Below the pieces are notes generated by a model. The model had not been told where the DNA came from, did no database searches, and saw only the letters and a program-made list of their open reading frames with translations. Made by a program: the position numbers and the translations under genes. DNA of 53,280 bases from Gammaproteobacteria bacterium (GTDB taxonomy: Bacteria; Pseudomonadota; Gammaproteobacteria; Ga0077536), in NCBI GenBank assembly GCA_030429865.1, contig JAUIFX010000005.1, forward strand, positions 1 through 53,280, read 5' to 3'. Positions 17,646 through 46,718 of the stretch are shown piece after piece (within the stretch, counting starts at the first letter, position 1; every line of letters begins with the position of its first letter).

Positions 17646-19910
17646 ATGCCCATGCCCTATATCACCGGCTATGCCGATCCCCTGAGCGTGAAGCCCGGCG
17701 AGACCATCCGATTCATGCTCAGCGCCGAAGGCGCGAACACGGCCGAGGCCGCCATCGTGCGCCTCGTCCACGGCGACGAGCATCCCGAGGGCCCGGGTTT
17801 CGTCGAGGAGGAGGTCGCGACCGACATCGCGCGCGAAGTCGCACTCGAACATCAGCCGACGCAGGTCGGCAGCTTCCTCGAGGTGGACGACGCGCAGGCC
17901 CGCCTCGCTCCCACCGGGGACTTCACCTTGCATGCCTGGATCTGGCCGACGCTGACCGCCGCCGGACCCCAGGCATTGCTGTCGCGTTACGATGCGGCGG
18001 CGCGGACTGGCTACGCGCTGACCATCAATGCCGACGGCTGCCTCGCCTTTCTCAGCGGTGACGGCAAGGTGGCGGCCGAAGTCGCGCTCGACCTGCCCTT
18101 GACCGAGCGGGTGTGGTACTTCGTCGCCGCCGCTTTCGATGCCGCGAGCGGCCGCGTGCGCCTCTACCAGCGCGCCGTCGTCAACGCCTGGAACAGCCGC
18201 CTCGCGCCGCTCGTCGAGCGCCGCTACGATGCCAGCGCCGCGTTGCCCGTCGTCGCCGCGCCCGGTGTGTCGGGGACCGGCTTCCTGGTCGCCGGGCGCT
18301 ACGATACCGCGGCGCCGGCGGGCTGCCGGGTCGGGCAATGCTTCAACGGCAAGATCGACCGCCCCGGCATCGTCGCCGCGGCGCTCGACGAGGAGACGCT
18401 GACGCGGTTCGCCGCCGGTGAGCGGCCCGGCGAGCACGACGTCATCGCTTTCTGGGACACTACCGCCGGTTACCGGGACGACGGCATCGGCGATGTAGTC
18501 TACGACGTCGGGCCGCACGCGCTGCACGGCCGCGGCCGCAACCGCCCGATCCGCGCGATGACGGGCTACAACTGGCGCGGGCGCGACGACTGTTTCCGCC
18601 TTGACCCCTCGCAGTACGGCGGCGTCTATTTCCATGCCGACGCCATCACCGACTGCGCCTGGCGTCCGGGCCTCGCCTGGCGGGTACCGGAGGATCTGCG
18701 CAGCGGCGTCTACGCGCTGCGCCTGCGCGGCAACGGGCTCGAGGATCACGTGACGTTCTTCGTGCGCCCGCTGCAGGCCACGGCAAAGGTGGCGATGCTG
18801 ATGCCGACGGCGAGCTATCTCGCCTACGCCAACGAGCGCTTTGTCCTCGACGGGCCGATGGTTGCGGTCGTTACCGGCCACACGCTGATGTTGTCCGATA
18901 CCGACTACCTGCTCGGGCAGCACCCGGAGTTCGGCAGTTCGACCTACGACCACTACGCGGACGGTGACGGCGTGTGCTACTCGTCGTCGCGCCGGCCGAT
19001 TCTCAACCTGCGTCCGCGGCATCGCATGGCCGCGACCGGTGTGCCGTGGCAGTTTCCCGCCGACCTGTCGATCATCTGGTGGCTGGAACAATCGGGGTTC
19101 GATTACGACGTCATCACCGACACCGATCTTGACCGCGAGGGGCTGGCCCTGCTCGAGCCTTACAGCGTGGTCATCAACGGTACCCACTCGGAGTACTACT
19201 CGGAGCGCATGATGGACGCGACCGATGCCTACATCGCTGGCGGCGGGCGCGTGATGTACCTCGGCGCGAACGGCTATTACTGGGTGGTCGGTTTCCGTAC
19301 CGGGGAGCCGTGGTGCATGGAGGTGCGCAAGCTCAATGCCGGCTCGCGCGCCTGGCAGGCCGCGCCGGGCGAGCATTACATGACGAGCGATGGCAACCGT
19401 GGCGGCCTGTGGCGCGACCGTGGCCGTCCCCCGCAGAAATCGATGGGCGTGGGCTTCACCAGCGAGGGCATGGACGAGTGCAAGCCCTATCGCCGGCTGC
19501 CGGACAGCCACGATCCGCGGGTCGCCTGGGCGCTGGACGGCGTCGGCGAGGTGTTCGGCGACAACGGTCTCGCACTCGGCGGCGCCGCCGGTCTCGAACT
19601 CGACCGCTACGACCTCGCCTGGGGCACGCCGCCGGACACCTTCCTGCTCGCCGCCTCCGAGGGGCATTCGGACAACTATCCCCATGTCGGCGAGGAGGTC
19701 CTGTTCAACTTCCCCGGACTCGGCGGCACGCAGGATTTCCAGGTCCGCGGCGACGTCACCCTGTTCGCTGCCCGCAACGGTGGCGCGGTGTTCTCGACCG
19801 GCTCGATCGCCTGGGGCCAGGCGCTGCCCTGGAATGGCGGCGACAACGACATTGCGCGCGTTACGCGCAACGTGCTCAGCGCCTTCCTCGAGCGCAAGCA
19901 GCTGTTCTGA
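17646..19910 (+). CDS. dmfA2: N,N-dimethylformamidase large-subunit-like amidohydrolase
   Basis: 754 residues, close to the about 760 of characterised DMFase large subunits. Known family members hydrolyse N,N-dimethylformamide to dimethylamine and formate with a mononuclear iron held by two Tyr and one Glu. Residues about 70-260 form a LamG/concanavalin-like module (FTLHAWIWPTL, RVWYFVAAAFDAASGRVRLY). The catalytic part begins near 380 with AMLMPTASYLAYANERF, then STYDHYADGDGVCYSS, and INGTHSEYYSERM. By recall of the Paracoccus enzyme (Tyr399, Tyr440, Glu521), likely iron ligands here are Tyr394, Tyr434 or Tyr437, and Glu516. Several relatives act on other amides, so DMF itself is not proven. 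No signal peptide. A hairpin follows the stop. Confidence 0.85.
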   Translation: MPMPYITGYADPLSVKPGETIRFMLSAEGANTAEAAIVRLVHGDEHPEGPGFVEEEVATDIAREVALEHQPTQVGSFLEVDDAQARLAPTGDFTLHAWIWPTLTAAGPQALLSRYDAAARTGYALTINADGCLAFLSGDGKVAAEVALDLPLTERVWYFVAAAFDAASGRVRLYQRAVVNAWNSRLAPLVERRYDASAALPVVAAPGVSGTGFLVAGRYDTAAPAGCRVGQCFNGKIDRPGIVAAALDEETLTRFAAGERPGEHDVIAFWDTTAGYRDDGIGDVVYDVGPHALHGRGRNRPIRAMTGYNWRGRDDCFRLDPSQYGGVYFHADAITDCAWRPGLAWRVPEDLRSGVYALRLRGNGLEDHVTFFVRPLQATAKVAMLMPTASYLAYANERFVLDGPMVAVVTGHTLMLSDTDYLLGQHPEFGSSTYDHYADGDGVCYSSSRRPILNLRPRHRMAATGVPWQFPADLSIIWWLEQSGFDYDVITDTDLDREGLALLEPYSVVINGTHSEYYSERMMDATDAYIAGGGRVMYLGANGYYWVVGFRTGEPWCMEVRKLNAGSRAWQAAPGEHYMTSDGNRGGLWRDRGRPPQKSMGVGFTSEGMDECKPYRRLPDSHDPRVAWALDGVGEVFGDNGLALGGAAGLELDRYDLAWGTPPDTFLLAASEGHSDNYPHVGEEVLFNFPGLGGTQDFQVRGDVTLFAARNGGAVFSTGSIAWGQALPWNGGDNDIARVTRNVLSAFLERKQLF

Positions 19911-23142: not shown

Positions 23143-23396
23143 GACCCCTGGGCACTGCGGTGTGTGTAGCGATGGTGCTCCGAGGCGGAGCCCGGCGATC
23201 GAGTCGCCCACGGGCGGCGCGCTCGGCGGCGTGCGTCTCGAAACTATGTCGGACCGCCACGGCGATTCTTTAAGATGCGGGCGGGCGCGCACGGCGACGA
23301 GCGACCGGTTCTGGTTGCGGGTTCGCCGAACGGCGTCCGCGGTGGGCGGGGCGGCCGGGCACGCGGCGCTGTCCGCCGTCCTTGCCTGGCGCTAGC

Positions 23397-25247
23397 ATGC
23401 GCTCGATGGATGCGCGAGGACTCGACGAAGGGACGGCCGTGGACGGCGCCGAAGACCGGGCACAGCCGGTCGCCGCGGCGCCGCGCCCATCGACACCGGT
23501 GATGGCCGGTGACCGCGAGCGCGCCGTGCTGGCCGAGCGCCTGCGGATCCTCGGCCGCAACAATCCGCCGATCCTGTTCGTACACCTCGTGCTGGCCGGC
23601 ATCATGTGGGTCGCCAACCGGCCCGCCGCGTTGCCCTGGCTGTCCGATGCCTGGCTGCTGGCGATGGGCCTGATGGTGGCCGCGCGACTCGCGCTGCACC
23701 GGCGTGAGCCGGCAGCCACGGCGGCGGCGTTGCGGCGCCAGGCGCGCACCTTCGTCATGGGCAGCGGCGCGGCAGGCCTGCTGTGGGGGTCGACCGCGCT
23801 GCTGTACTTCTGGCCCGGCGCGCTCGAACAGCAGTTCCTGCTGGTGGTTGCGCTGACCGGCATGGGGGCCGGCGCCGTGACCTCGCTGATCATGTACATG
23901 CCCGCGTTCTACGCCTACCTGCTGCCGTCGCTCCTGCCGCTGGCCGGCGTGTCGCTGGTCTACGGCGACACGCCGCACGCGGCGCTCGGTATCGCCACCC
24001 TGGTCTACGCGCTCGCGCTCGGTTATTTCGGGCGCAATTTCTCGCGCGCTCTCGTCGAGTCGCTGATGCTGCGCTACGAGAATCTCGACCTGGTCGGCGA
24101 GCTGCGCGCGCAGAAGCAGCAGGCCGACGAGGCCAACGCGGCGAAATCGCGTTTCCTCGCCGCGGCCAGCCATGACCTGCGCCAGCCGGTGCACGCACTG
24201 GCCTTGTTCAACGGCACCCTGCAGACACGCCCGGTCGACGACGAGACCGCGCACGTGGTCGCGCAGATGGGTGCCGCGGTAGAAACCCTCGAGCGCATGT
24301 TCGACGGGCTGCTCGACATATCCCGGCTCGACGCGGGCGTGCTCGAAGTCCGGCCCGAAGCCTGCGATCTCGCCGTCATCGGCAACGAGCTGGTGTCGGA
24401 GTTCACGCCGCTGGCCGCCGAGAAGGGCCTGGTCATCAGCGCCCGGGACATGCGCGGCTGGGTGTGGGCGGATCGCGCACTGCTGGAACGTATCGTGCGC
24501 AACCTGTTGGCCAACGCGGTGCGCTACACGGATGCCGGCACGGTCAGCCTGCGCTGCCGCGAGAGCGCGTCGATGCTGCGCATCGAGGTTGCCGACACCG
24601 GCCCGGGCATTGCCGCCGCGGACCAGGCCGCGATCTTCCAGGAGTTCCACCAGCTCGCCGACACGCGCAGCGACCGCCGGCAGGGGCTGGGACTGGGGCT
24701 CGCGATCGTCGCGCGCGCGGCGCGGTTGCTGGGCACGCGAACCGAGGTGCGCTCGACCCGCGGGGTGGGCTCGGTGTTTGCCATCACGCTGCCGCGCGCG
24801 CGGCGGGTGCCGCGGGTGGCTGCGGCGCGCGAGGCGCTGCCGGGCGCGCCGATCGGTGACGATATCGAGCGGCTCGAGGTGCTCGTGGTCGATGACAACC
24901 CGGGTATTCTCAAGGGCATGCAGACCCTGCTCGGCGACTGGCGCTGCGTGCCGACGTGCTGCGAATCGCATGCGGCGGTGCTCGCAGTGCTGGCCGAGGG
25001 ATACCGGCCGCAGGCCGTGATCGCGGATTTTCGCCTCCCCGGCGAGCATACCGGTTACGACACGATCCTCGCCGTGCGCGCCGCGCTCGAACAGCAGGTG
25101 CCTGCCATCATCATCACCGGCGACATCGTCTCGGAGCGTCTGCGCGAAGCCGAAGCGGGCGGCATCCCGGTGCTGCACAAGCCGGCCGCCCCGGCCAAGC
25201 TGCGCAGTTTCCTGCGCAGCGCGCGGCGCGCCGGCGCTGCGCGCTGA
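23397..25247 (+). CDS. Membrane hybrid sensor histidine kinase with REC domain
   Basis: 616 residues from ATG 23397; ATG 23406 is equally possible, as neither has a clear ribosome site. About six transmembrane segments lie at roughly 57-75, 82-100, 118-138, 146-165, 168-188 and 194-211, with very short loops, so sensing is probably within the membrane. A short linker leads to HisKA with His259 in AASHDLRQP (the RQP variant). HATPase_c shows NLLANAVRYT, DTGPGI and GLGLGLAIV. A C-terminal receiver (VLVVDDNPGILKG, acceptor Asp in VIADFRLPG, Lys in LHKPAAP) completes it. Kinases of this DLRQP type often act with LuxR-type regulators, but none is encoded nearby. Divergent from the response regulator (254 bases). 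A strong hairpin follows. Confidence 0.92.
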   Translation: MRSMDARGLDEGTAVDGAEDRAQPVAAAPRPSTPVMAGDRERAVLAERLRILGRNNPPILFVHLVLAGIMWVANRPAALPWLSDAWLLAMGLMVAARLALHRREPAATAAALRRQARTFVMGSGAAGLLWGSTALLYFWPGALEQQFLLVVALTGMGAGAVTSLIMYMPAFYAYLLPSLLPLAGVSLVYGDTPHAALGIATLVYALALGYFGRNFSRALVESLMLRYENLDLVGELRAQKQQADEANAAKSRFLAAASHDLRQPVHALALFNGTLQTRPVDDETAHVVAQMGAAVETLERMFDGLLDISRLDAGVLEVRPEACDLAVIGNELVSEFTPLAAEKGLVISARDMRGWVWADRALLERIVRNLLANAVRYTDAGTVSLRCRESASMLRIEVADTGPGIAAADQAAIFQEFHQLADTRSDRRQGLGLGLAIVARAARLLGTRTEVRSTRGVGSVFAITLPRARRVPRVAAAREALPGAPIGDDIERLEVLVVDDNPGILKGMQTLLGDWRCVPTCCESHAAVLAVLAEGYRPQAVIADFRLPGEHTGYDTILAVRAALEQQVPAIIITGDIVSERLREAEAGGIPVLHKPAAPAKLRSFLRSARRAGAAR

Positions 25248-25396: not shown

Positions 25397-25412
25397 TACG
25401 ACTTTAGTCGTA
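25397..25412. promoter_or_regulatory. Perfect 16-bp palindrome, candidate operator
   Basis: TACGACTTTAGTCGTA: 7-bp arms around TT. It stands out as AT-richer than the surroundings. Two GTACGC direct repeats (25410 and 25431) follow 21 bases apart. It lies 120 bases before the start codon of the 1756-residue PEP-CTERM protein, and just after the hybrid kinase gene. A -10-like TATGCT is at 25471-25476. Confidence 0.5.
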
Positions 25413-25531: not shown

Positions 25532-28500
25532 ATGTCGTCAAGCATCGTCCCCCCCGAGACCCGGTCGGGCATGAGCCGCCCGCAGCGTTCCCGACGCCGC
25601 CACGGCCGCGCGGCCGCGCTCGTCCTGGCCACGGTGTTGGCAGGCCAGGCGCGCGCCGGCGACGCCATTCACCAGTTCGGTCCCAGCGGCGGTGCCGCGC
25701 TCGATTTTTCCGTCGGTGGCGGTGCGGCGCGCTACGAGTTCACGACCGGCGATTCTCTCGTCGCCCGCCTCGATGCCGGTGGCTCCATCGGCGGCATCGC
25801 CGGCAGCCGCAATGCCGTGGTGATCCCCGAGTTCCTGTTCATACCCGAGGTTCGCGCCGATACACGCAGCGGTCTCAAGCTGTCCCTCGGCGTCGATGCT
25901 TACGCGGGCATCGAACTCTCCGGCGGTTTCGATCTCGGTGGCGGTGAAATCAGCGGCAGTTACGCGCTGGGGCCGCGCCTGACGCTGCCCGAGCAGGTGC
26001 GTGCCGGCGAGTTCTTCAGCGCGCGCGGCGAGACCTGGATCAGCGGCGCCGGCCTCGACTTCAATGTCGCTCTGCCGTCGTTCGACCTCGGTATGGACGT
26101 GGTGCTCGGGGGCAGTGCCGGGGGCGCAATCGAGTACGGCCTGTTCCCGTTCGTGCCCTACAACATCGGCGCGTTCAACCTCGACCTGCCGGACATCCGC
26201 CTGCCGGTTTTCGATCTCGGGCTCGATTTCAACCTGCCCGGCCTGCCGAACTTCAGCTTCCTCGACATTCCCAACCTGATCCCGCCGGGCCAGCAGGACG
26301 ACGCCCTGTTCCGCAAGAAGCTACCCGGCATCGATCCCCTGAAACCGGGCGGGCCGGGGCCACTGCTCTCCGCCGGCGAGGTGGTGCTGGTCAACCCGGC
26401 GGCGAGCGCGAGCAGCAGCGGGCCGGTCGTCGAAGGCGGCGCCATCGTCACGCGCACCGCTGGTGACCTGATGCGCTTCGGGCTCGATCTCGACGGGATC
26501 GCGACGTTCGCGGCCACCGGCGTCTCCTTCACCGGCCTCGAGATCGACATCAAGCCCGGCTCGGTCAGCCTTGCCAAGCTCGGCTACGACCTCATCGACG
26601 TCAAGTACGGGCTCGAGATCGGCTACGAGCTGGAGAACCGCGTCGACACCTTCCTCGAGGTCGACCTGAGTTTCGTCGACGCGCTGAGCGGCGAGGCGGT
26701 CGATGTCCTGTTGCGCGAGGAGGGCGGGGTGACGTTCGCGAGCAGCTACTCGGGACGCTTCGATGCGCTGCCCGACATCGCGCTGCTCGGCTCGAGCGAC
26801 GTCGAGATGCTGATCGACTTCACCGGGCTCAAGCGCACCCTGAACCAGAAAGGCTCGCTGACGCTCAGCGACTACATGGAGATCAAGGCGCTCGCGGCGC
26901 GCGCCAGCGTGCTCGGTGGCGTAGCCGGCATCGAACTCGGCCCGCTCTACTATCGCAAGCTCGAACTGGCCGGCGACTTCGCCGCGCTGGACGTCTACGA
27001 CGTCTCGCTGACGCTGTCCGACCTCGGCCTGGTCGACGGGCTGTTCGACGGGCGCGTGCTGATCGATGCCATTCCGACCCTCGATGCCTACCTCGAGGGC
27101 ACCACGCCCGGGACGCCGGTCTTCGGCACCCTGGACCCGGCGCAGTTCACGCTGCTCGAAACGCACCAGGGGGCGGCGGCGACGCCGTCCGCCGACATCG
27201 TCTACGCCATCGGCGGTGGCGACGCGGCGACGCGCGCGCGGCACGAGCTGGAAGCGGCGAGCTATTACATCGATGCGTCGGTGACGCGGCAGCTGTCCGG
27301 CCTCTACGTGGCGCCGGGCTCCGAGTTCATCGCCGGAACGCGCACGGCGGTCGACGCCACGCTGCGCCTCAACAGCATCCAGAACGACGGTTTCATCTCG
27401 GTCTTCCTCGGCGGCACCGGGACCGGCACGTCATTGCGTTTCGAAAGCGTACAGCCTGACGGTGCGCTGATCGTGCAGGGCGAGGGCGAGATGTTCTTCG
27501 GCGAACGTGGCGGTATCGCCGCCGGGACGCTGATCAACGGGCGCGAGCACAGCATCACGTTCATGGACAACCTGTTCCAGCCGAACGTCCATCAGCGCGT
27601 GCTGCTCGGCCGCCAGAAGATCGAGAACCAGGGCCTGCTCGCCGCGCGCCGCCGCTGGGATGAGGTGATCCTGCCGGTGCGCACGCCCTGGTTCGTCAAT
27701 ACCGAGAGCGGCGTGGTGCGCGCCGGGGCGGACAGCACGATCACGTTCCGCGCACCGAGCGGCAGCGGCGCGAACCTGCAGTTCAGCAATCTCGGCCTGG
27801 TCGAGGCGCGCGGCGCCGGTGCGCGCATCGATATCGGCGCGGCAGCCATCAGCGGCGGCTTCGTACCGGGCACGGCCGACCTGGGCGATGCGAGGCGTGG
27901 CTTGTTCCGCGCGCGCGACGGTGGCCACTTCGACGTGCGTCACGTCGCCTCGGGCCCGGGGCGCTTCGACCTGCTGCTCTCCGGTGCGCTGGCTTTCGAT
28001 ATCGGTGCCGGTTCCAGCACCACGTTCCATTCGCGGATCGACCTCGATGGGGACCTCAGCCTCGTCAACGCGGCCGGCGGCACGCTGACCCTGAACGGCC
28101 TGCAGCGGCTGTCGGAGTCGGCGCAGATCGACATCGTCAATCACGGACTGCTCGACCTCGTCTCCGGCATCACCTCGTTGCGGCCGCAGGGAACGAGCTG
28201 CCCCGGCTGTCCGCCGCCGGCGCCCATCATCCGCCCCATCGACCTCGTCAATACCGGCACGGTGCGCGTGCATGCCGGCGCGGGTTTCGCCTTCGACGTC
28301 GATATCGTCGAGTACGCCGAAGGCGGCGCGAGCCTGAACAGCGGCGCGTGGGAGCTGTTCGGCCAGCGCAAGCTGTTCGACAGCCGCAGCGCCGTCGACA
28401 TCCGCGACCAGCGCAGCGATCTCGCGATCATCGACGTTCGCGTCAACGAAGTGTTCGGCAACGCGGCGAAGTTCGCCGATCTCGCGTTCGACGAAATACT

Positions 28501-30802
28501 CGATCCGGATACCGGCGAAGTGGTCTCGGTGACCTCCGACATCGGCGCGCTCGATACCCGCCTCGTCTTCAACGACGCCACCGTGCGCCTGCACGGCGCG
28601 GCGCACTTCGGTTATTTCAACACCGTCGGCGTCAACCGCGGCGAGTTCGAGATTGCCCACCTGCAGCAGTTCTACACCGACGGCAACTACGAGAACCGTG
28701 GGGGGCTTACGCGGGTCGACGAAGACGGCGGGCTGCACGTCAACGGCGCGCTCGTCATCAACGGTGGCGAGGTGCGTATCGGTGAGCACGACAGCGTTGC
28801 CGACGGCGCCCGGTTCAGCGAACTCTCCACGCAGGGTGCGGAACTCCTGCAGGCCGATGGCACGCTGGCGCGCCGCGACGTCGAGATCAACGGCGGCACG
28901 CTCTATCTCGGCAAGTATGCGAAACTCGGGGGGCAGTTTCTCCACGGCTTCGGCGGGTTGTTCGATGCCGGCAGCAACGGTGGTCACGCGCTGCGTGCCG
29001 GCCATAGCTGGGCCGTGCGGGATGTCGTCACGGACGACGGCTTGGGCAACGAGACGGTGACGCCGGGCGAGATCGTGCTCGACACTCGCGGCGGCGTGCT
29101 CGAACGCGGCAATCCGGACGCGGGCGTTGCCGAGATCCATGACAACCACGCCGAGGTGCTCATCGAAGGCACCGCGGCGCGTTTCGGTGGACTCGAATAC
29201 CTCGCCCTCAACACGGGTTCTCTGACCTTACGTGGCGGCGCGTCGTTCGAGCGGCTCGACTCGGCAGCGGTTGCCGGCAACACGCTGACCAATGCGCCCG
29301 GCGGCATGCTGCGCCTCGATGGTGCGCAGTTCCGCTTCGCCGGCGCTGACAGCCTGCTCGTCAACGCCGGCCTGCTCGACGTCGGCGCGAATGCCTATCT
29401 CGAGGTCGATCGCATCAGCGCCGGCGCCGGCGACGGCGGCCGCATCGACGTCGCGGGCGTGCTCAACGCCGCCGAGGGGGTTGCGACCCGGCATCTGGTA
29501 ATGACCGGCGGCGCGATCGTCACGCCGCAGATCGGACTCGGCGGCCGCGCCGGCGACAACGGCACGCTGTTGGTACCGACCGGCATCGACGGCCAGGTCG
29601 GCGGTGTGCTCGAACTCGCCGGCGGGCGCCTCGCTGGCAGCGCGATCGCGGCGCGTGGGGGCGACGGCGGCCGCGGTTCGACGTTACTGCTGGGGGCCAA
29701 TGGTTCGAGCGGCGGAGCCGGCGGTGACGGTGGCAGCATCACCTTGAGCGGCGGCCGGCTCGTCGCCGATGCCGGCATCGACCTGCGCGGCGGCGCCGGC
29801 GGCAACGGCATCAACGGCGTTGTCGTGGTCCTCGTTGCCGGTGCCGGTGGTGACGGCGGCGCGGGTGGCGACGGTGGTGACATCCACCTCGACGGCGGCG
29901 AACTCGTGCTCGCCGGTGGCAGCATCGACCTGCGCGGCGGTGCCGGCGGCGCGCGCGGCCTCGGCGCGACGAATGTCTTCGGCGGGCGCGGCGCCAACGG
30001 TCGCAGCGGCGCCGCGGGCGCCGACGGCCGGCTTGCCATCAACGGGGGAACGCTGACCGCGAACGCGCAGGCTTTCGACAACGCGATACTGGGTGAGGTC
30101 AGCTACAGCCACGGTACGCTGCATTTCACCGACGACCTGTTCGAGCTCGATGCTTCGAGCACGCGCCTCAATGCCCTGCTCGGAGCGGCCGGCAAGTCGC
30201 TCGGTGCCGGCCAGGCGCTCGCCGTCGACCAGGTGCTGCGCGTCGGCGCCGGCAGCGCGCTCACGCTCGCCGGTGGGCTGCTCGAAGCCGGGACGCTCGA
30301 ACTCGACCCCGCCGCGAGCCTCGCTTTCCTCGACGGCGTGCTCGACGTCGGCACGCTCGCAGGCGATCTCGTCCAGCAGGGCGGCACGCTCGCACCGGGC
30401 AACTCGCCCGGGTTGACCACCATCACCGGCGACTACACGCTTGCCGGCGGCCTGCTCGACCTCGAACTCGGCGGCGGCGAACGGGGCGTGTCCTACGACG
30501 CGCTCGACGTCGGCGGCACGGCGACGCTCGGCGGCACGCTGGCGGTGCGCCTGCTCGACGGCTTCCTGCCGGGCAATGGTGATGTTTTCGAGCTGCTCGC
30601 CGCCGAGACCATCGCCGGCACGTTCGATGCGCTGACCCTGGCACTGTTGCCGGATGGCCGGAGCTGGGATCTTGCCTACGTGCTCGATCCGCTCGGCACC
30701 GACTTCGTGACGCTGCGCGCGAGCGCGATCCCGCTGCCCCCCGCGGCCTGGCTGCTGGCGAGCGCATTGCTTGCGCTGTGCTGGCGGCGGCGCGTGGCCT
30801 GA
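25532..30802 (+). CDS. Giant secreted protein with VPLPA/PEP-CTERM-type sorting tail
   Basis: 1756 residues from ATG 25532 (AAAGGA 8 bases upstream). A basic N-terminus and AAALVLATVLAGQARA give a signal peptide. Residues about 45-560 form a unique Gly/Leu/Asp-rich region. About 560-1370 has repeated short beta-strand motifs (GSxLRFESVQPDG, NQGLL, NTGTVRVHAG, NGGEVRIGEHD) like a beta-helix adhesin. About 1370-1506 is Gly-rich, PGRS-like (GGAGGDGG). About 1600-1720 resembles autotransporter-associated repeats (GTLAPGNSPGLTTITGDYTL). The C-terminus IPLPPAAWLL, a hydrophobic helix and RRR is a PEP-CTERM/VPLPA-type sorting signal, implying processing by an exosortase and extracellular or surface display. 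No beta-barrel is present. No exosortase lies in the window. Its ligand or role (adhesion, matrix) is unknown. Confidence 0.88.
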   Translation: MSSSIVPPETRSGMSRPQRSRRRHGRAAALVLATVLAGQARAGDAIHQFGPSGGAALDFSVGGGAARYEFTTGDSLVARLDAGGSIGGIAGSRNAVVIPEFLFIPEVRADTRSGLKLSLGVDAYAGIELSGGFDLGGGEISGSYALGPRLTLPEQVRAGEFFSARGETWISGAGLDFNVALPSFDLGMDVVLGGSAGGAIEYGLFPFVPYNIGAFNLDLPDIRLPVFDLGLDFNLPGLPNFSFLDIPNLIPPGQQDDALFRKKLPGIDPLKPGGPGPLLSAGEVVLVNPAASASSSGPVVEGGAIVTRTAGDLMRFGLDLDGIATFAATGVSFTGLEIDIKPGSVSLAKLGYDLIDVKYGLEIGYELENRVDTFLEVDLSFVDALSGEAVDVLLREEGGVTFASSYSGRFDALPDIALLGSSDVEMLIDFTGLKRTLNQKGSLTLSDYMEIKALAARASVLGGVAGIELGPLYYRKLELAGDFAALDVYDVSLTLSDLGLVDGLFDGRVLIDAIPTLDAYLEGTTPGTPVFGTLDPAQFTLLETHQGAAATPSADIVYAIGGGDAATRARHELEAASYYIDASVTRQLSGLYVAPGSEFIAGTRTAVDATLRLNSIQNDGFISVFLGGTGTGTSLRFESVQPDGALIVQGEGEMFFGERGGIAAGTLINGREHSITFMDNLFQPNVHQRVLLGRQKIENQGLLAARRRWDEVILPVRTPWFVNTESGVVRAGADSTITFRAPSGSGANLQFSNLGLVEARGAGARIDIGAAAISGGFVPGTADLGDARRGLFRARDGGHFDVRHVASGPGRFDLLLSGALAFDIGAGSSTTFHSRIDLDGDLSLVNAAGGTLTLNGLQRLSESAQIDIVNHGLLDLVSGITSLRPQGTSCPGCPPPAPIIRPIDLVNTGTVRVHAGAGFAFDVDIVEYAEGGASLNSGAWELFGQRKLFDSRSAVDIRDQRSDLAIIDVRVNEVFGNAAKFADLAFDEILDPDTGEVVSVTSDIGALDTRLVFNDATVRLHGAAHFGYFNTVGVNRGEFEIAHLQQFYTDGNYENRGGLTRVDEDGGLHVNGALVINGGEVRIGEHDSVADGARFSELSTQGAELLQADGTLARRDVEINGGTLYLGKYAKLGGQFLHGFGGLFDAGSNGGHALRAGHSWAVRDVVTDDGLGNETVTPGEIVLDTRGGVLERGNPDAGVAEIHDNHAEVLIEGTAARFGGLEYLALNTGSLTLRGGASFERLDSAAVAGNTLTNAPGGMLRLDGAQFRFAGADSLLVNAGLLDVGANAYLEVDRISAGAGDGGRIDVAGVLNAAEGVATRHLVMTGGAIVTPQIGLGGRAGDNGTLLVPTGIDGQVGGVLELAGGRLAGSAIAARGGDGGRGSTLLLGANGSSGGAGGDGGSITLSGGRLVADAGIDLRGGAGGNGINGVVVVLVAGAGGDGGAGGDGGDIHLDGGELVLAGGSIDLRGGAGGARGLGATNVFGGRGANGRSGAAGADGRLAINGGTLTANAQAFDNAILGEVSYSHGTLHFTDDLFELDASSTRLNALLGAAGKSLGAGQALAVDQVLRVGAGSALTLAGGLLEAGTLELDPAASLAFLDGVLDVGTLAGDLVQQGGTLAPGNSPGLTTITGDYTLAGGLLDLELGGGERGVSYDALDVGGTATLGGTLAVRLLDGFLPGNGDVFELLAAETIAGTFDALTLALLPDGRSWDLAYVLDPLGTDFVTLRASAIPLPPAAWLLASALLALCWRRRVA
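29643..30050 (+). repeat. Gly/Ala/Asp-rich PGRS-like coding repeat
   Basis: Encodes about 136 residues of GG-x repeats. Modules such as GGDGGRG, GGAGGDGG, DLRGGAGG, GAGGDGGAGGDGG, DLRGGAGG recur, interleaved with short strand-like segments (ITLSGGRLV, IHLDGGELV, LAINGGTL). The two DLRGGAGG modules lie about 165 bases apart. Confidence 0.75.
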
Positions 30803-40481: not shown

Positions 40482-41159
40482 TCAGGTGGTCTCCGGCCGG
40501 TACAGGCGGCGCTCCAGAAGCGGCCCCGGCTGCAGCGGCGCGAGCGTCTTGGCGAGCGCCAGCACGGCGAGATCGACCAGGGGTTCGATCGCGATGACGA
40601 CCAGGTAGGCGGCGCCGAAGCTCAGCACGGCCGGGACGTTGGCAGCGCCACCGCCCCACAACGCCCACAACGCGACCCAGCCGACGATCCCCGCCTGGTA
40701 GGTCGTCGACAGTGCCAGCGCCTGCCGGTAGCTCACGTCGACGTAGGCCGTTTGCGGGCGGATGATGCGCCCGGCCAGCGCGGCGATGGCGAACAGCGGT
40801 ACCAGCAGCGTCGTCACGTTCATGCCGTATTGCGGCAGGTCGAACGGCGCGAAGACCAGCCCCTGCACCAGCAGGCCGAGGGCGAGGCCGAGCGCGGCGG
40901 GCGCCGCACCGAACAGCAGCAACAGTGTCGAGCCGAGGATGAAATGTACTTCGGAGACGCCGACCGGCCGGTGCGGCAGCAGCTCGAAGAAGCACAGTAC
41001 CAGCGCCGTGGTGGCGAGACTGCGTGCAACGAGCGAGAGGGCGCCGCGCTCGCGCAGGGCCAGCCACGCCTGCTGCAGTGCATACCCGGCGACACCGCCT
41101 GCCGCGGCGTAGCCCATCCACAGTTTGCCGCTCGCGACCAGGCCAGGTTCGATGTGCAT
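40482..41159 (-). CDS. CbiM-like cobalt transporter membrane component
   Basis: 225 residues from ATG 41159. The N-terminal MHIEPG matches the CbiM/NikM MHIxxG start, whose Met-His binds the metal ion. Six to seven transmembrane helices follow, with HRPVGVSEVHFILGSTLLLLFG (the CbiM-type EVHFILG region) in the middle. CbiM is the substrate-binding S-component of energy-coupling cobalt importers. No CbiN, CbiQ or CbiO partner is encoded here, so it may act alone or share an ECF module. It is the last gene of the nitrile hydratase cluster, 72 bases after the accessory gene, and presumably supplies the cobalt that enzyme needs. Confidence 0.85.
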   Translation of the reverse strand: MHIEPGLVASGKLWMGYAAAGGVAGYALQQAWLALRERGALSLVARSLATTALVLCFFELLPHRPVGVSEVHFILGSTLLLLFGAAPAALGLALGLLVQGLVFAPFDLPQYGMNVTTLLVPLFAIAALAGRIIRPQTAYVDVSYRQALALSTTYQAGIVGWVALWALWGGGAANVPAVLSFGAAYLVVIAIEPLVDLAVLALAKTLAPLQPGPLLERRLYRPETT

Positions 41160-42335: not shown

Positions 42336-42968
42336 TCAGGCCTTGCCCGGCTGCCGGGGCAGGCCGGTGCCGATCATCGAATCGCGCGTGACGAGTTCGG
42401 CGAGCGCTTCCTCGCTCATGCCCTCGGTGCCCGCCGGCCGTTCGGGCAGCACCATATACCGCAGCTCCGCGGTGCTGTCCCACACGCGGATCTCCTTGTC
42501 ACGCGGGATCTTCAGACCGAACTCCGCCAGCACGCTGCGCGGGTCGATGACCACGCGCGAGCGGTACGGCGCGGCCTTGTACCAGGCCGGCGGCAGGCCG
42601 AGCGTCGGCCACGGGTAGCAGGAACACAGGGTGCACACGGTGACGTTGTGGACTTCGGGCGTGTTCTCGAGCACGACCATGTCTTCGCCCTGCACGCCGG
42701 AGAAGCCGAGTTCGGCGATGGCCGCCGTCGCGTCGCCCAGCAGCCGCGCCTTGTACTCGGCATCGACCCAGGCCTTGGCCACGACCTTGGCGCCGTTGCG
42801 CGGGCCGACCTTGTGTTCGTAGGTATCGACCACGGCGTCGATCGCCGCCGGGTCGACCAGGCCCTTCTCGACGAGCAGCGACTCGAGCGCCTTGACCCGG
42901 AGCGCGATCGCCTCGGGCGGGGCCTGGTAGCCGTCGTGTTCGTGGTCGTGGTCGTGCGAGTGTGCCAT
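42336..42968 (-). CDS. nthA: Cobalt-type nitrile hydratase alpha subunit
   Basis: 210 residues from ATG 42968. The metal claw [11 protein letters not shown] (Cys112, Cys115, Ser116, Cys117) has Thr after the first Cys, as in cobalt enzymes; Fe enzymes have Ser (CSLCSC). The motif is followed by GLPPAWYK and later [23 protein letters not shown]. The enzyme hydrates nitriles to amides in the cytoplasm, after Cys115 is oxidised to sulfinic and Cys117 to sulfenic acid. The N-terminus [15 protein letters not shown] is an unusual His/Asp-rich tail. It is the first gene of the cluster, behind a promoter at 43061-43088. No amidase or aldoxime dehydratase gene is in the window. Confidence 0.97.
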
Positions 42969-43060
42969 GGCGCTGGTTCTCCTTCGTGAACGGGTCGGTC
43001 GCAAGCGTCATGCGACGTGTCGTGCCCGGCCCGCGGCGAGTTTCGCGCGGGCGTCGCACC

Positions 43061-45981: not shown

Positions 45982-46082
45982 GGAGGCGCGACCCTCGAAG
46001 CGCCGCGCAAGCGTTCGCGCCGCAGGGTCGGGTGCGCTTTGCGAAGCGTTGGTCGCACATCACAAGGTCACCAGGGTCCGCC

Positions 46083-46718
46083 ATGTCGTCTATCTCAAAA
46101 AGGTTTTGCACCGTCATTCTGCTGTCGTTCGTCGTGGCCGGCGCGGCGAGGGCGGAACGCTACGAAATCAGCTTTTTCGGATCGGACCCGGTCGGCGTCG
46201 CTCTCACCGGGTTCGTCGATCTCGACCCGAACCCCGTCGGGATATATGCAGGCTCGGCCAGTTTCATGTCCAGCGTCGTCGACGCCTTCGAGATCCGCGT
46301 CACGGGCGATCTGCGCGGTGACTTCGTCTTCACGCCGGGTAACAGCCTGATCGGCAATCTCGGCCGCGGATGGGACCTCACCTGGGAGGTCACCGACGCC
46401 GGCATCTTCGTTTCCAGCCCGACGGCCGCGCACGGACCGAGCAGTTCGATCCTGTCCGCGTTCGGCGGCAACCAGTGGCTACGGCTGTCCTCGTCGCAAC
46501 TCGACTACCGCAATAACTCGAATGGCGGCAACCAGCTGACCGATTACGGCCCGGGGCCGCTGCCGCTGGCGTTCAACACGTATCAAGCCAACGGCGGACC
46601 GTTCGTGAGCACACTCGGTGCCGGGTCGCCGGTTCCCATACCGGCTGCGGCATGGATGTTTGGCGCTGGCGTGATGTCGCTCGCGGCAGTCGCGCGCAGG
46701 CATCGCCGCCGAGTTTGA
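46083..46718 (+). CDS. Small secreted protein with VPLPA/PEP-CTERM-type tail
   Basis: 211 residues from ATG 46083. The signal peptide is FCTVILLSFVVAGAARA. The mature domain of about 160 residues is beta-rich with many Gly, Ser and Asn (FFGSDPVGVALTGFVDLDPNP, SSSILSAFGGNQWLRLSSSQLDY), typical of PEP-CTERM substrates and with no known function. The C-terminus VPIPAAAWMFGAGVMSLAAVARRHRRR has the tripartite signal: VPxPAAxW, hydrophobic helix, basic end. It is the same variant as in the 1756-residue protein, so both are likely clients of one exosortase encoded elsewhere. It has its own promoter. Convergent with the glutaredoxin-MauE gene. Confidence 0.88.
   Translation: MSSISKRFCTVILLSFVVAGAARAERYEISFFGSDPVGVALTGFVDLDPNPVGIYAGSASFMSSVVDAFEIRVTGDLRGDFVFTPGNSLIGNLGRGWDLTWEVTDAGIFVSSPTAAHGPSSSILSAFGGNQWLRLSSSQLDYRNNSNGGNQLTDYGPGPLPLAFNTYQANGGPFVSTLGAGSPVPIPAAAWMFGAGVMSLAAVARRHRRRV

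What the first reader, a model, noticed from the sequence alone, without database searches (positions are those of the whole stretch)
25532..30802. 1756-residue PEP-CTERM protein with a unique N-terminal third and a PGRS-like tract
Most PEP-CTERM substrates are 150-350 residues. This one has a unique 500-residue Gly/Leu/Asp region, a long beta-helix-like body, a GGAGGDGG tract resembling mycobacterial PGRS, an autotransporter-like repeat, and then a VPLPA-type tail. It may be a very large surface adhesin or matrix protein delivered by exosortase instead of an autotransporter barrel.
Basis: partly seen in the sequence, partly recalled or inferred. Interest (0 to 1): 0.55.

Follow-up and report, generated by a model that had tools for sequence, protein, structure and literature searches.

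The report
Giant exosortase-tailed protein, shared N-terminal module
The gene encodes a very large, probably secreted surface or matrix protein whose supposedly unique front third belongs to an unannotated protein module that recurs, alone or fused to other parts, in surface-type proteins of other bacteria.

Summary
The ORF is real: 1756 aa, signal-like start, C-terminal P-x-P / hydrophobic / Arg tail. The genome has an XrtA exosortase inside an XrtA/PEP-CTERM polysaccharide cluster. The tail misses every curated cut-off (PF07589 14.8 vs 20.7 bits) but ranks first of 43 proteins under a model built from 14 related tails. The G043 homologue's tail narrowly misses VPLPA-CTERM (24.9 vs 25.35).
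Three first-reader points change. (1) The N-terminal third is not unique: it is a ~490-aa module, unnamed in the Pfam and NCBIfam scans made, stand-alone in 521-704-aa proteins with PEP/VPLPA-like tails and present in three long proteins of other classes, two with RTX repeats. (2) The 'PGRS-like' tract is five short GGx blocks, largely missing in G043. (3) The 'autotransporter-like repeat' is one end-cap, reused in this order with VPLP tails.
The layout recurs in a C53 paralogue, G043 (shorter C-terminal part) and single-contig genome G649. A GACTT-box precedes these genes; G043 shares the nearby hybrid kinase.
Best reading: a kinase-associated, exosortase-delivered, strand-rich matrix protein or adhesin. 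Secretion and module family are well supported; adhesion is inferred. Both structure predictions failed.

The parts
25532..30802 (+). CDS, 1756 aa, giant VPLP-tailed protein
   Evidence: full-length homologues; ribosome-binding-like AAGGA
25532..25660 (+). signal peptide region, residues 1-43 (n-region RRRHGR, core AAALVLATVLAG, A-x-A before the mature start); judged by eye, no signal-peptide predictor on hand
   Evidence: similar layout by eye in homologues
25661..27121 (+). N-terminal module, residues 44-530 (66% identical to the C53 paralogue, 55% to G043); same family as the stand-alone proteins
27122..29401 (+). body, residues 531-1290, strand-rich by eye, no Pfam match; kept in C53 and G043 homologues
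29657..29953 (+). Gly-rich stretch, residues 1376-1474: five short GGx blocks; the surrounding 1291-1525 is largely missing in G043
30107..30721 (+). C-terminal cap, residues 1526-1730, recurring ahead of VPLP tails in this order; distant match to an autotransporter passenger end
30725..30799 (+). sorting-signal-like tail, residues 1732-1756: PLPP, hydrophobic stretch, RRR
25397..25412 (.). inverted repeat TACGACT-TT-AGTCGTA; core GACTTTAGTC 25400-25409 is the only match to GACTTYMGTC in the window; possible regulator site 122 bases before the start
23382..25247 (+). hybrid histidine kinase (HisKA, HATPase, receiver), 41% identical over 577 aligned columns to the kinase near the G043 homologue

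Best explanation
A large modular extracellular protein. Steps: (1) Sec export through its signal peptide; (2) temporary anchoring in the inner membrane by the PLPP-hydrophobic-RRR tail; (3) cutting and release or transfer outward by the genome's XrtA exosortase together with exopolysaccharide export; (4) the 490-aa N-terminal module displayed on a long strand-rich body closed by a C-terminal cap, acting in the exopolysaccharide matrix or as a surface adhesin. The gene is probably controlled by a two-component system bound to the GACTT-box. Shown here: gene, module homology, cap and tail cassette, exosortase cluster, box, kinase synteny with one homologue. Inferred: processing by XrtA, the fold, regulation, matrix or adhesive role.
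For: Exosortase cluster with XrtA at 315.2 bits; 17 of 32 PEP-CTERM matches over cut-off in the genome. Cap plus [VI]P[LV]P tail in 16 of 16 aligned sequences, the two prolines invariant (these are 15 of the 30 rows plus one; the other 15 rows were not examined for tails in that alignment). Tail model from 14 of those rows, without the window and C53 rows: window gene first of 43. Module in proteins with PEP/VPLPA-like tails: G160 25.9 bits, over the 20.7 cut-off; G154 17.7; G766 15.2 vs 16 for TIGR02595. Same layout in G649, 2005 aa. Module beside RTX, Ig-like or HYR repeats in long proteins of other classes. Literature: PEP-CTERM proteins tie to exopolysaccharide genes and EpsH (PMC1569441, passages and section 7); a PEP-CTERM protein is involved in floc formation in Aquincola (PMC9850573, abstract).
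Against: The tail misses every curated tail model. Of the 8 other module proteins with PEP/VPLPA-like tails scanned whole with Pfam, only G160 passes PF07589, G154 falls short and 6 give nothing at E 0.01. No sigma-54-like site (recalled consensus) within 2 mismatches in the 284 bases upstream, although such sites precede 99 of 167 proteobacterial PEP-CTERM genes (PMC1569441). NCBIfam names XrtD as specific for VPLPA tails; the exosortase here scores 125.3 of the 400 needed for XrtD. No confident structure (mean pLDDT 29.5 and 38.2). No direct evidence of adhesion.
Confidence: 0.6

Rival explanations
1. The tail is a plain C-terminal membrane anchor: the protein stays in the inner membrane facing the periplasm and no exosortase acts.
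For: All curated tail models missed; no sigma-54-like site upstream.
Against: P-x-P invariant at the same place in 16 of 16 cap-bearing sequences aligned; genome rich in PEP-CTERM tails; G043 tail at 24.9 vs 25.35 bits for VPLPA-CTERM.
Confidence: 0.15
2. A second, XrtM-like enzyme on contig C92, not XrtA, processes the VPLP-type tails.
For: The C92 protein scores 113.4 bits for XrtM (cut-off 125) and 46 for the exosortase/archaeosortase signature (cut-off 23). The genome holds two tail classes: PEP-type and VPLP-type.
Against: XrtA is the only match over the PF09721 cut-off; no test links either enzyme to either class.
Confidence: 0.15
3. A decayed autotransporter whose barrel was lost, with a chance hydrophobic end.
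For: The cap resembles an autotransporter passenger end.
Against: Tail and cap occur together in 16 of 16 sequences aligned; homologues with the same overall layout are open reading frames in two further families, G043 and G649; no barrel in the Pfam scans.
Confidence: 0.03
4. The window contig is foreign to this bin (estimated contamination 4.61%), so exosortase and gene belong to different cells.
For: Genus-mate G016 shows only the C53-type copy; contamination estimate. Base composition and coverage of the contig were not tested.
Against: A 58% identical full-length paralogue lies on another contig of the bin, and its upstream neighbour and intergenic region are also found in G016; the window carries a second VPLPA-like tail.
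Confidence: 0.07

Closest known systems
PEP-CTERM / VPLPA-CTERM exosortase substrates (PF07589, TIGR02595, TIGR03370)
   Same: Signal-like start, P-x-P motif, hydrophobic stretch, Arg cluster; XrtA cluster in the genome.
   Different: Far larger than the over-cut-off proteins of this genome; tail below all curated cut-offs.
Autotransporter passenger end-cap (Serratia extracellular serine protease, 8e7f)
   Same: Distant sequence match over about 130 residues of the cap.
   Different: No beta-barrel follows; a VPLP tail does.
RTX-repeat large proteins of other classes (G568, G720)
   Same: Carry the same module; Ig-like and RTX repeats in G568, RTX and a weak cadherin-like match in G720.
   Different: RTX repeats and no PEP-CTERM-like tail seen; module at the start in G568, at the end in G720.
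Mycobacterial PGRS proteins (recalled, no call)
   Same: Some GGx triplets.
   Different: Only five blocks of 2-4 triplets.

Membership tests
PEP-CTERM / VPLPA-CTERM substrate | tail reaches a curated tail model cut-off | tested here: not met
   PF07589 14.8 vs 20.7 bits; no NCBIfam tail model over cut-off
PEP-CTERM / VPLPA-CTERM substrate | P-x-P, hydrophobic stretch, basic end at the extreme C-terminus | tested here: met
PEP-CTERM / VPLPA-CTERM substrate | exosortase gene in the same genome | tested here: met
   XrtA 315.2 vs cut-off 208
PEP-CTERM / VPLPA-CTERM substrate | N-terminal signal peptide | tested here: inconclusive
   by eye only; no predictor on hand
PEP-CTERM / VPLPA-CTERM substrate | cleavage and relocation by the exosortase | not testable with these tools
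   needs an experiment
Autotransporter (type V secretion) | C-terminal beta-barrel translocator | tested here: not met
   no barrel family in Pfam scans; the protein ends in the tail
PGRS protein | long GGA-GGX array (definition recalled) | tested here: not met
   longest run 12 residues
N-terminal module family described here | profile similarity over most of the module | tested here: met
   hhalign 98.5%, E 2.8e-15 over 390 columns against four stand-alone proteins; controls 0.8% and 0.1%

The most novel reading that the evidence does not exclude
The N-terminal third is an undescribed extracellular module of about 490 residues that works as a plug-in functional head. It is used alone with exosortase tails, fused to giant strand-rich stalks with exosortase tails under a shared GACTT-box, and fused to RTX or HYR-repeat proteins in other classes; it may be the ligand-binding part of matrix proteins and adhesins delivered by unrelated secretion routes.
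Probability: 0.45. Interest if true: 0.65.

Novelty: new variant of a known kind. Interest (0 to 1): 0.5.

Why it matters
Many exosortase substrates match no known domain (fewer than 10% matched Pfam in PMC1569441, passage), so their roles are opaque. A domain family shared between exosortase-tailed proteins and RTX-repeat proteins would give a handle on what they bind, and the short stand-alone versions (521-704 aa) are feasible targets for expression and structure work. The box and the kinase suggest that a defined signal controls this gene, which is testable.

Tried and rejected
Structure: two AlphaFold2 jobs gave mean pLDDT 29.5 (residues 44-565, two sequences) and 38.2 (1290-1756, one sequence); too poor for a fold search, none run. 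PDB sequence profiles: the module gave nothing convincing (best E 1.3, 0.31); the whole-protein profile A5 gave viral glycoproteins and Obg GTPases at E 0.09-0.6, taken as chance. PHROGs, plasmids by tblastn and viral contigs: no relative. The genome-contig scan gave one relative, in a MAG titled 'Pseudomonadota bacterium isolate bin88' whose contig has the length of G016 C331 (7724) and reads the same over the module. Sigma-54 site: none upstream; matches in the window were no more than chance (44 vs 58 expected). Paper search for the box letters: 69 papers hold them; none of the 15 listed titles is about this. G296, listed at E 2.6e-4, reads by eye as a flagellar hook-associated protein and was dropped.

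Weak points. Members beyond G043 and G766 were found with models that included earlier members, so those E-values are not independent; G374 (8.1e-4) and G002 (0.0093) are weak, and G002's strong score is by construction because it is a row of that model. G766 was found by a model without it, at E 6.7e-6 per genome in a search of 398, i.e. about 0.003 over the search. The module is patchy: 8 of 369 class genomes at E 0.01, 6 of 398 phylum genomes at E 0.001, 1 of 12 genomes in G766's family. The box pattern was defined from the window, C53 and G043 genes, then also found before the G016 and G649 genes. In C53 and G016 the exact match sits in different halves of a tandem site pair, so the element is degenerate. 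Chance matches are not negligible (expected 0.26 in the window, 0.04-0.14 in the other stretches); matches also occur in L014, L037 and, inside an ORF, L083, and none in the loci of the stand-alone genes. The two genes upstream of the C53 copy read by eye as a dehydrogenase subunit and a lipoyl-domain hydrolase, not a kinase; a GGDEF-type gene (by eye) precedes G649.

Full report
Gene. The ORF at 25532-30802 (+) encodes 1756 residues, with coding-like codon-position GC. It starts 284 bases after a hybrid histidine kinase gene (23382-25247) and is followed by a convergent luciferase-like monooxygenase gene.

Delivery. The genome (G000, 4.6 Mb, 291 contigs, 95.7% complete) holds one exosortase over the PF09721 cut-off. 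It scores 315.2 bits for XrtA (cut-off 208) and sits among XrtA/PEP-CTERM-system genes: export protein, chain-length determinant, TIGR03016 outer-membrane protein, ATPase, deacetylase and amidotransferase over their cut-offs, and a tyrosine-kinase-like protein just under its own (220.6 vs 230.65). A second, XrtM-like protein is just under its cut-off (113.4 vs 125). Of 32 PF07589 matches at E up to 10, 17 pass the cut-off. The window tail does not: 11 bits in the whole protein, 14.8 as a 60-residue tail, 15.9 in the genome search, against 20.7. NCBIfam gives the window tail only sub-threshold hits; the C53 and G016 tails give no PF07589 match at E 10; the G043 tail scores 24.9 for VPLPA-CTERM as a 60-residue piece and 22.5 as a 206-residue piece, cut-off 25.35.

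Eight of the 17 over-cut-off tails were aligned and all read PEP; the window and C53 tails read PLPP. The PLPP form belongs to a second class in the order: a cap of about 150-200 residues followed by [VI]P[LV]P and a hydrophobic stretch, most with Arg at the end. I aligned 16 such sequences (15 of the 30 rows, one; the rest were left out); the two prolines are invariant. A profile from 14 of them, without the window and C53 rows, was run on 42 window ORFs chosen by codon-position GC plus the C53 protein: the window gene is first of 43 (24.9 bits, E 4.7e-8), then window gene 46032-46718 (18.8) and the C53 copy (18.7), nothing else above the inclusion threshold. The cap profile hits the end of a Serratia autotransporter protease passenger (8e7f) at E 0.0018.

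Close homologues. A paralogue on contig C53 is 58% identical over nearly the full length. Genus-mate G016 has that copy, on two contig ends (96% identical to C53 over the module), and no window-type copy was found. A homologue of 1456 residues lies in G043, another family of the class. By region, window vs C53 / vs G043: module 66% / 55%, residues 531-900 46% / 37%, 901-1290 57% / 53%, tail 62% / 50%; of 1291-1525, 161 of 235 residues face gaps in G043, and of 1526-1730, 103 of 205. Against G043 the module, the second half of the body and the tail are best kept, and the Gly-rich part is optional. It is not PGRS-like: five GGx blocks, the longest 12 residues.

The N-terminal module. Plain protein search of the 36 genomes of the order found matches covering the N-terminal part only in G000 and G016. 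Profiles changed that. Model A4 found G766 (the only genome of 398 beside our own, E 6.7e-6): a 571-residue protein made of the module and ending in a VPEP-type tail; hhalign 95.8%, E 7.2e-9. Model A8 on 369 class genomes gave 8 genomes at E up to 0.01: our own, G043, G154, G160, G329, G374, G002 and the rejected G296. G154, G329, G160, G374 and G002 are proteins of 521-704 residues with signal-like starts and PEP/VPLPA-like tails by eye; G007, found with A9, is another (681 aa). By Pfam, only G160's tail passes its cut-off. Long proteins against four stand-alone proteins: 98.5%, E 2.8e-15, 390 columns; controls against the cap and against the window body 0.8% and 0.1%.

Model A9 on 398 phylum genomes gave 6 genomes: our own, G766, G649, G559, G568, G720. 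G649 (4.13 Mb, one contig) has a 2005-residue protein with the module (99.2%), an Asn-rich repeat body by eye, the same cap (99.0%) and a PEP-like tail by eye. G568, G720 and G559, in other classes, carry the module (97.0%, 97.1%, 90.8%) with Ig-like and RTX, RTX, and HYR repeats respectively. In G559 the match covers only 139 columns, so it is the least certain. G006, in our own family, has a 498-aa module ORF followed after 51 bases by a 1966-aa ORF in the same direction that covers the place of the cap-and-tail match, so it may be one more case of the layout. In the 14 module proteins scanned with Pfam (the last two at E 0.01) no family's best stretch lies in the module; NCBIfam was run on the module only for the window protein and G766, with no match there.

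Regulation. GACTTYMGTC occurs once in the 53-kb window, at 25400-25409, inside a 7+2+7 inverted repeat 122 bases before the start. It occurs once in 20 kb around the C53 copy, once in 11.7 kb around G043 and once in 11 kb around G649, which was not used to define the pattern; each match lies before the gene. Expected numbers by shuffling are 0.26, 0.14, 0.06 and 0.04. Genome-wide there are 24 matches against 7 for the reversed control, two of them before our two genes. C53 and G016 show a tandem pair of sites with the exact match in different halves. The kinase before the window gene is 41% identical over 577 aligned columns to the kinase near the G043 copy, where a response regulator, read by eye as LuxR-type, lies between kinase and gene. 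The published sigma-54 signature of proteobacterial PEP-CTERM genes (PMC1569441, section 7 read) was not found upstream with the recalled consensus.

Mechanism and limits. The best reading is Sec export, exosortase-dependent release or anchoring, and a module-on-stalk role in the exopolysaccharide matrix. A PEP-CTERM protein is involved in floc formation in Aquincola (PMC9850573, abstract only). Both predicted structures failed, so the fold of the module and body stays open. Four paper searches showed no description of this module in the titles and abstract starts listed; that is not proof of absence from print.

Noticed in passing
window 46032-46718 (+): A second exosortase-type protein in the window, 228 residues from the first start codon, tail SPVPIPAAAWMFGAGVMSLAAVARRHRRRV; 18.8 bits with the local tail model.
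   Followed up: partly
L082 8732-9403 (-) and 7445-8461 (-): Beside the G649 giant protein: a small protein with a PEP-like tail and a GGDEF-type gene, both by eye.
   Followed up: no
   Followed up: partly
L046 7720-8262 (+), G000 contig C92: XrtM-like short exosortase-family protein just under its cut-off; its substrates are unknown here.
   Followed up: partly
window 42336-43004 (-), 40482-41159 (-): Nitrile hydratase alpha chain and a CbiM-type cobalt uptake gene lie close together.
   Followed up: no
window 17646-19910 (+): N,N-dimethylformamidase beta-subunit-like protein with a concanavalin-like domain.
   Followed up: no
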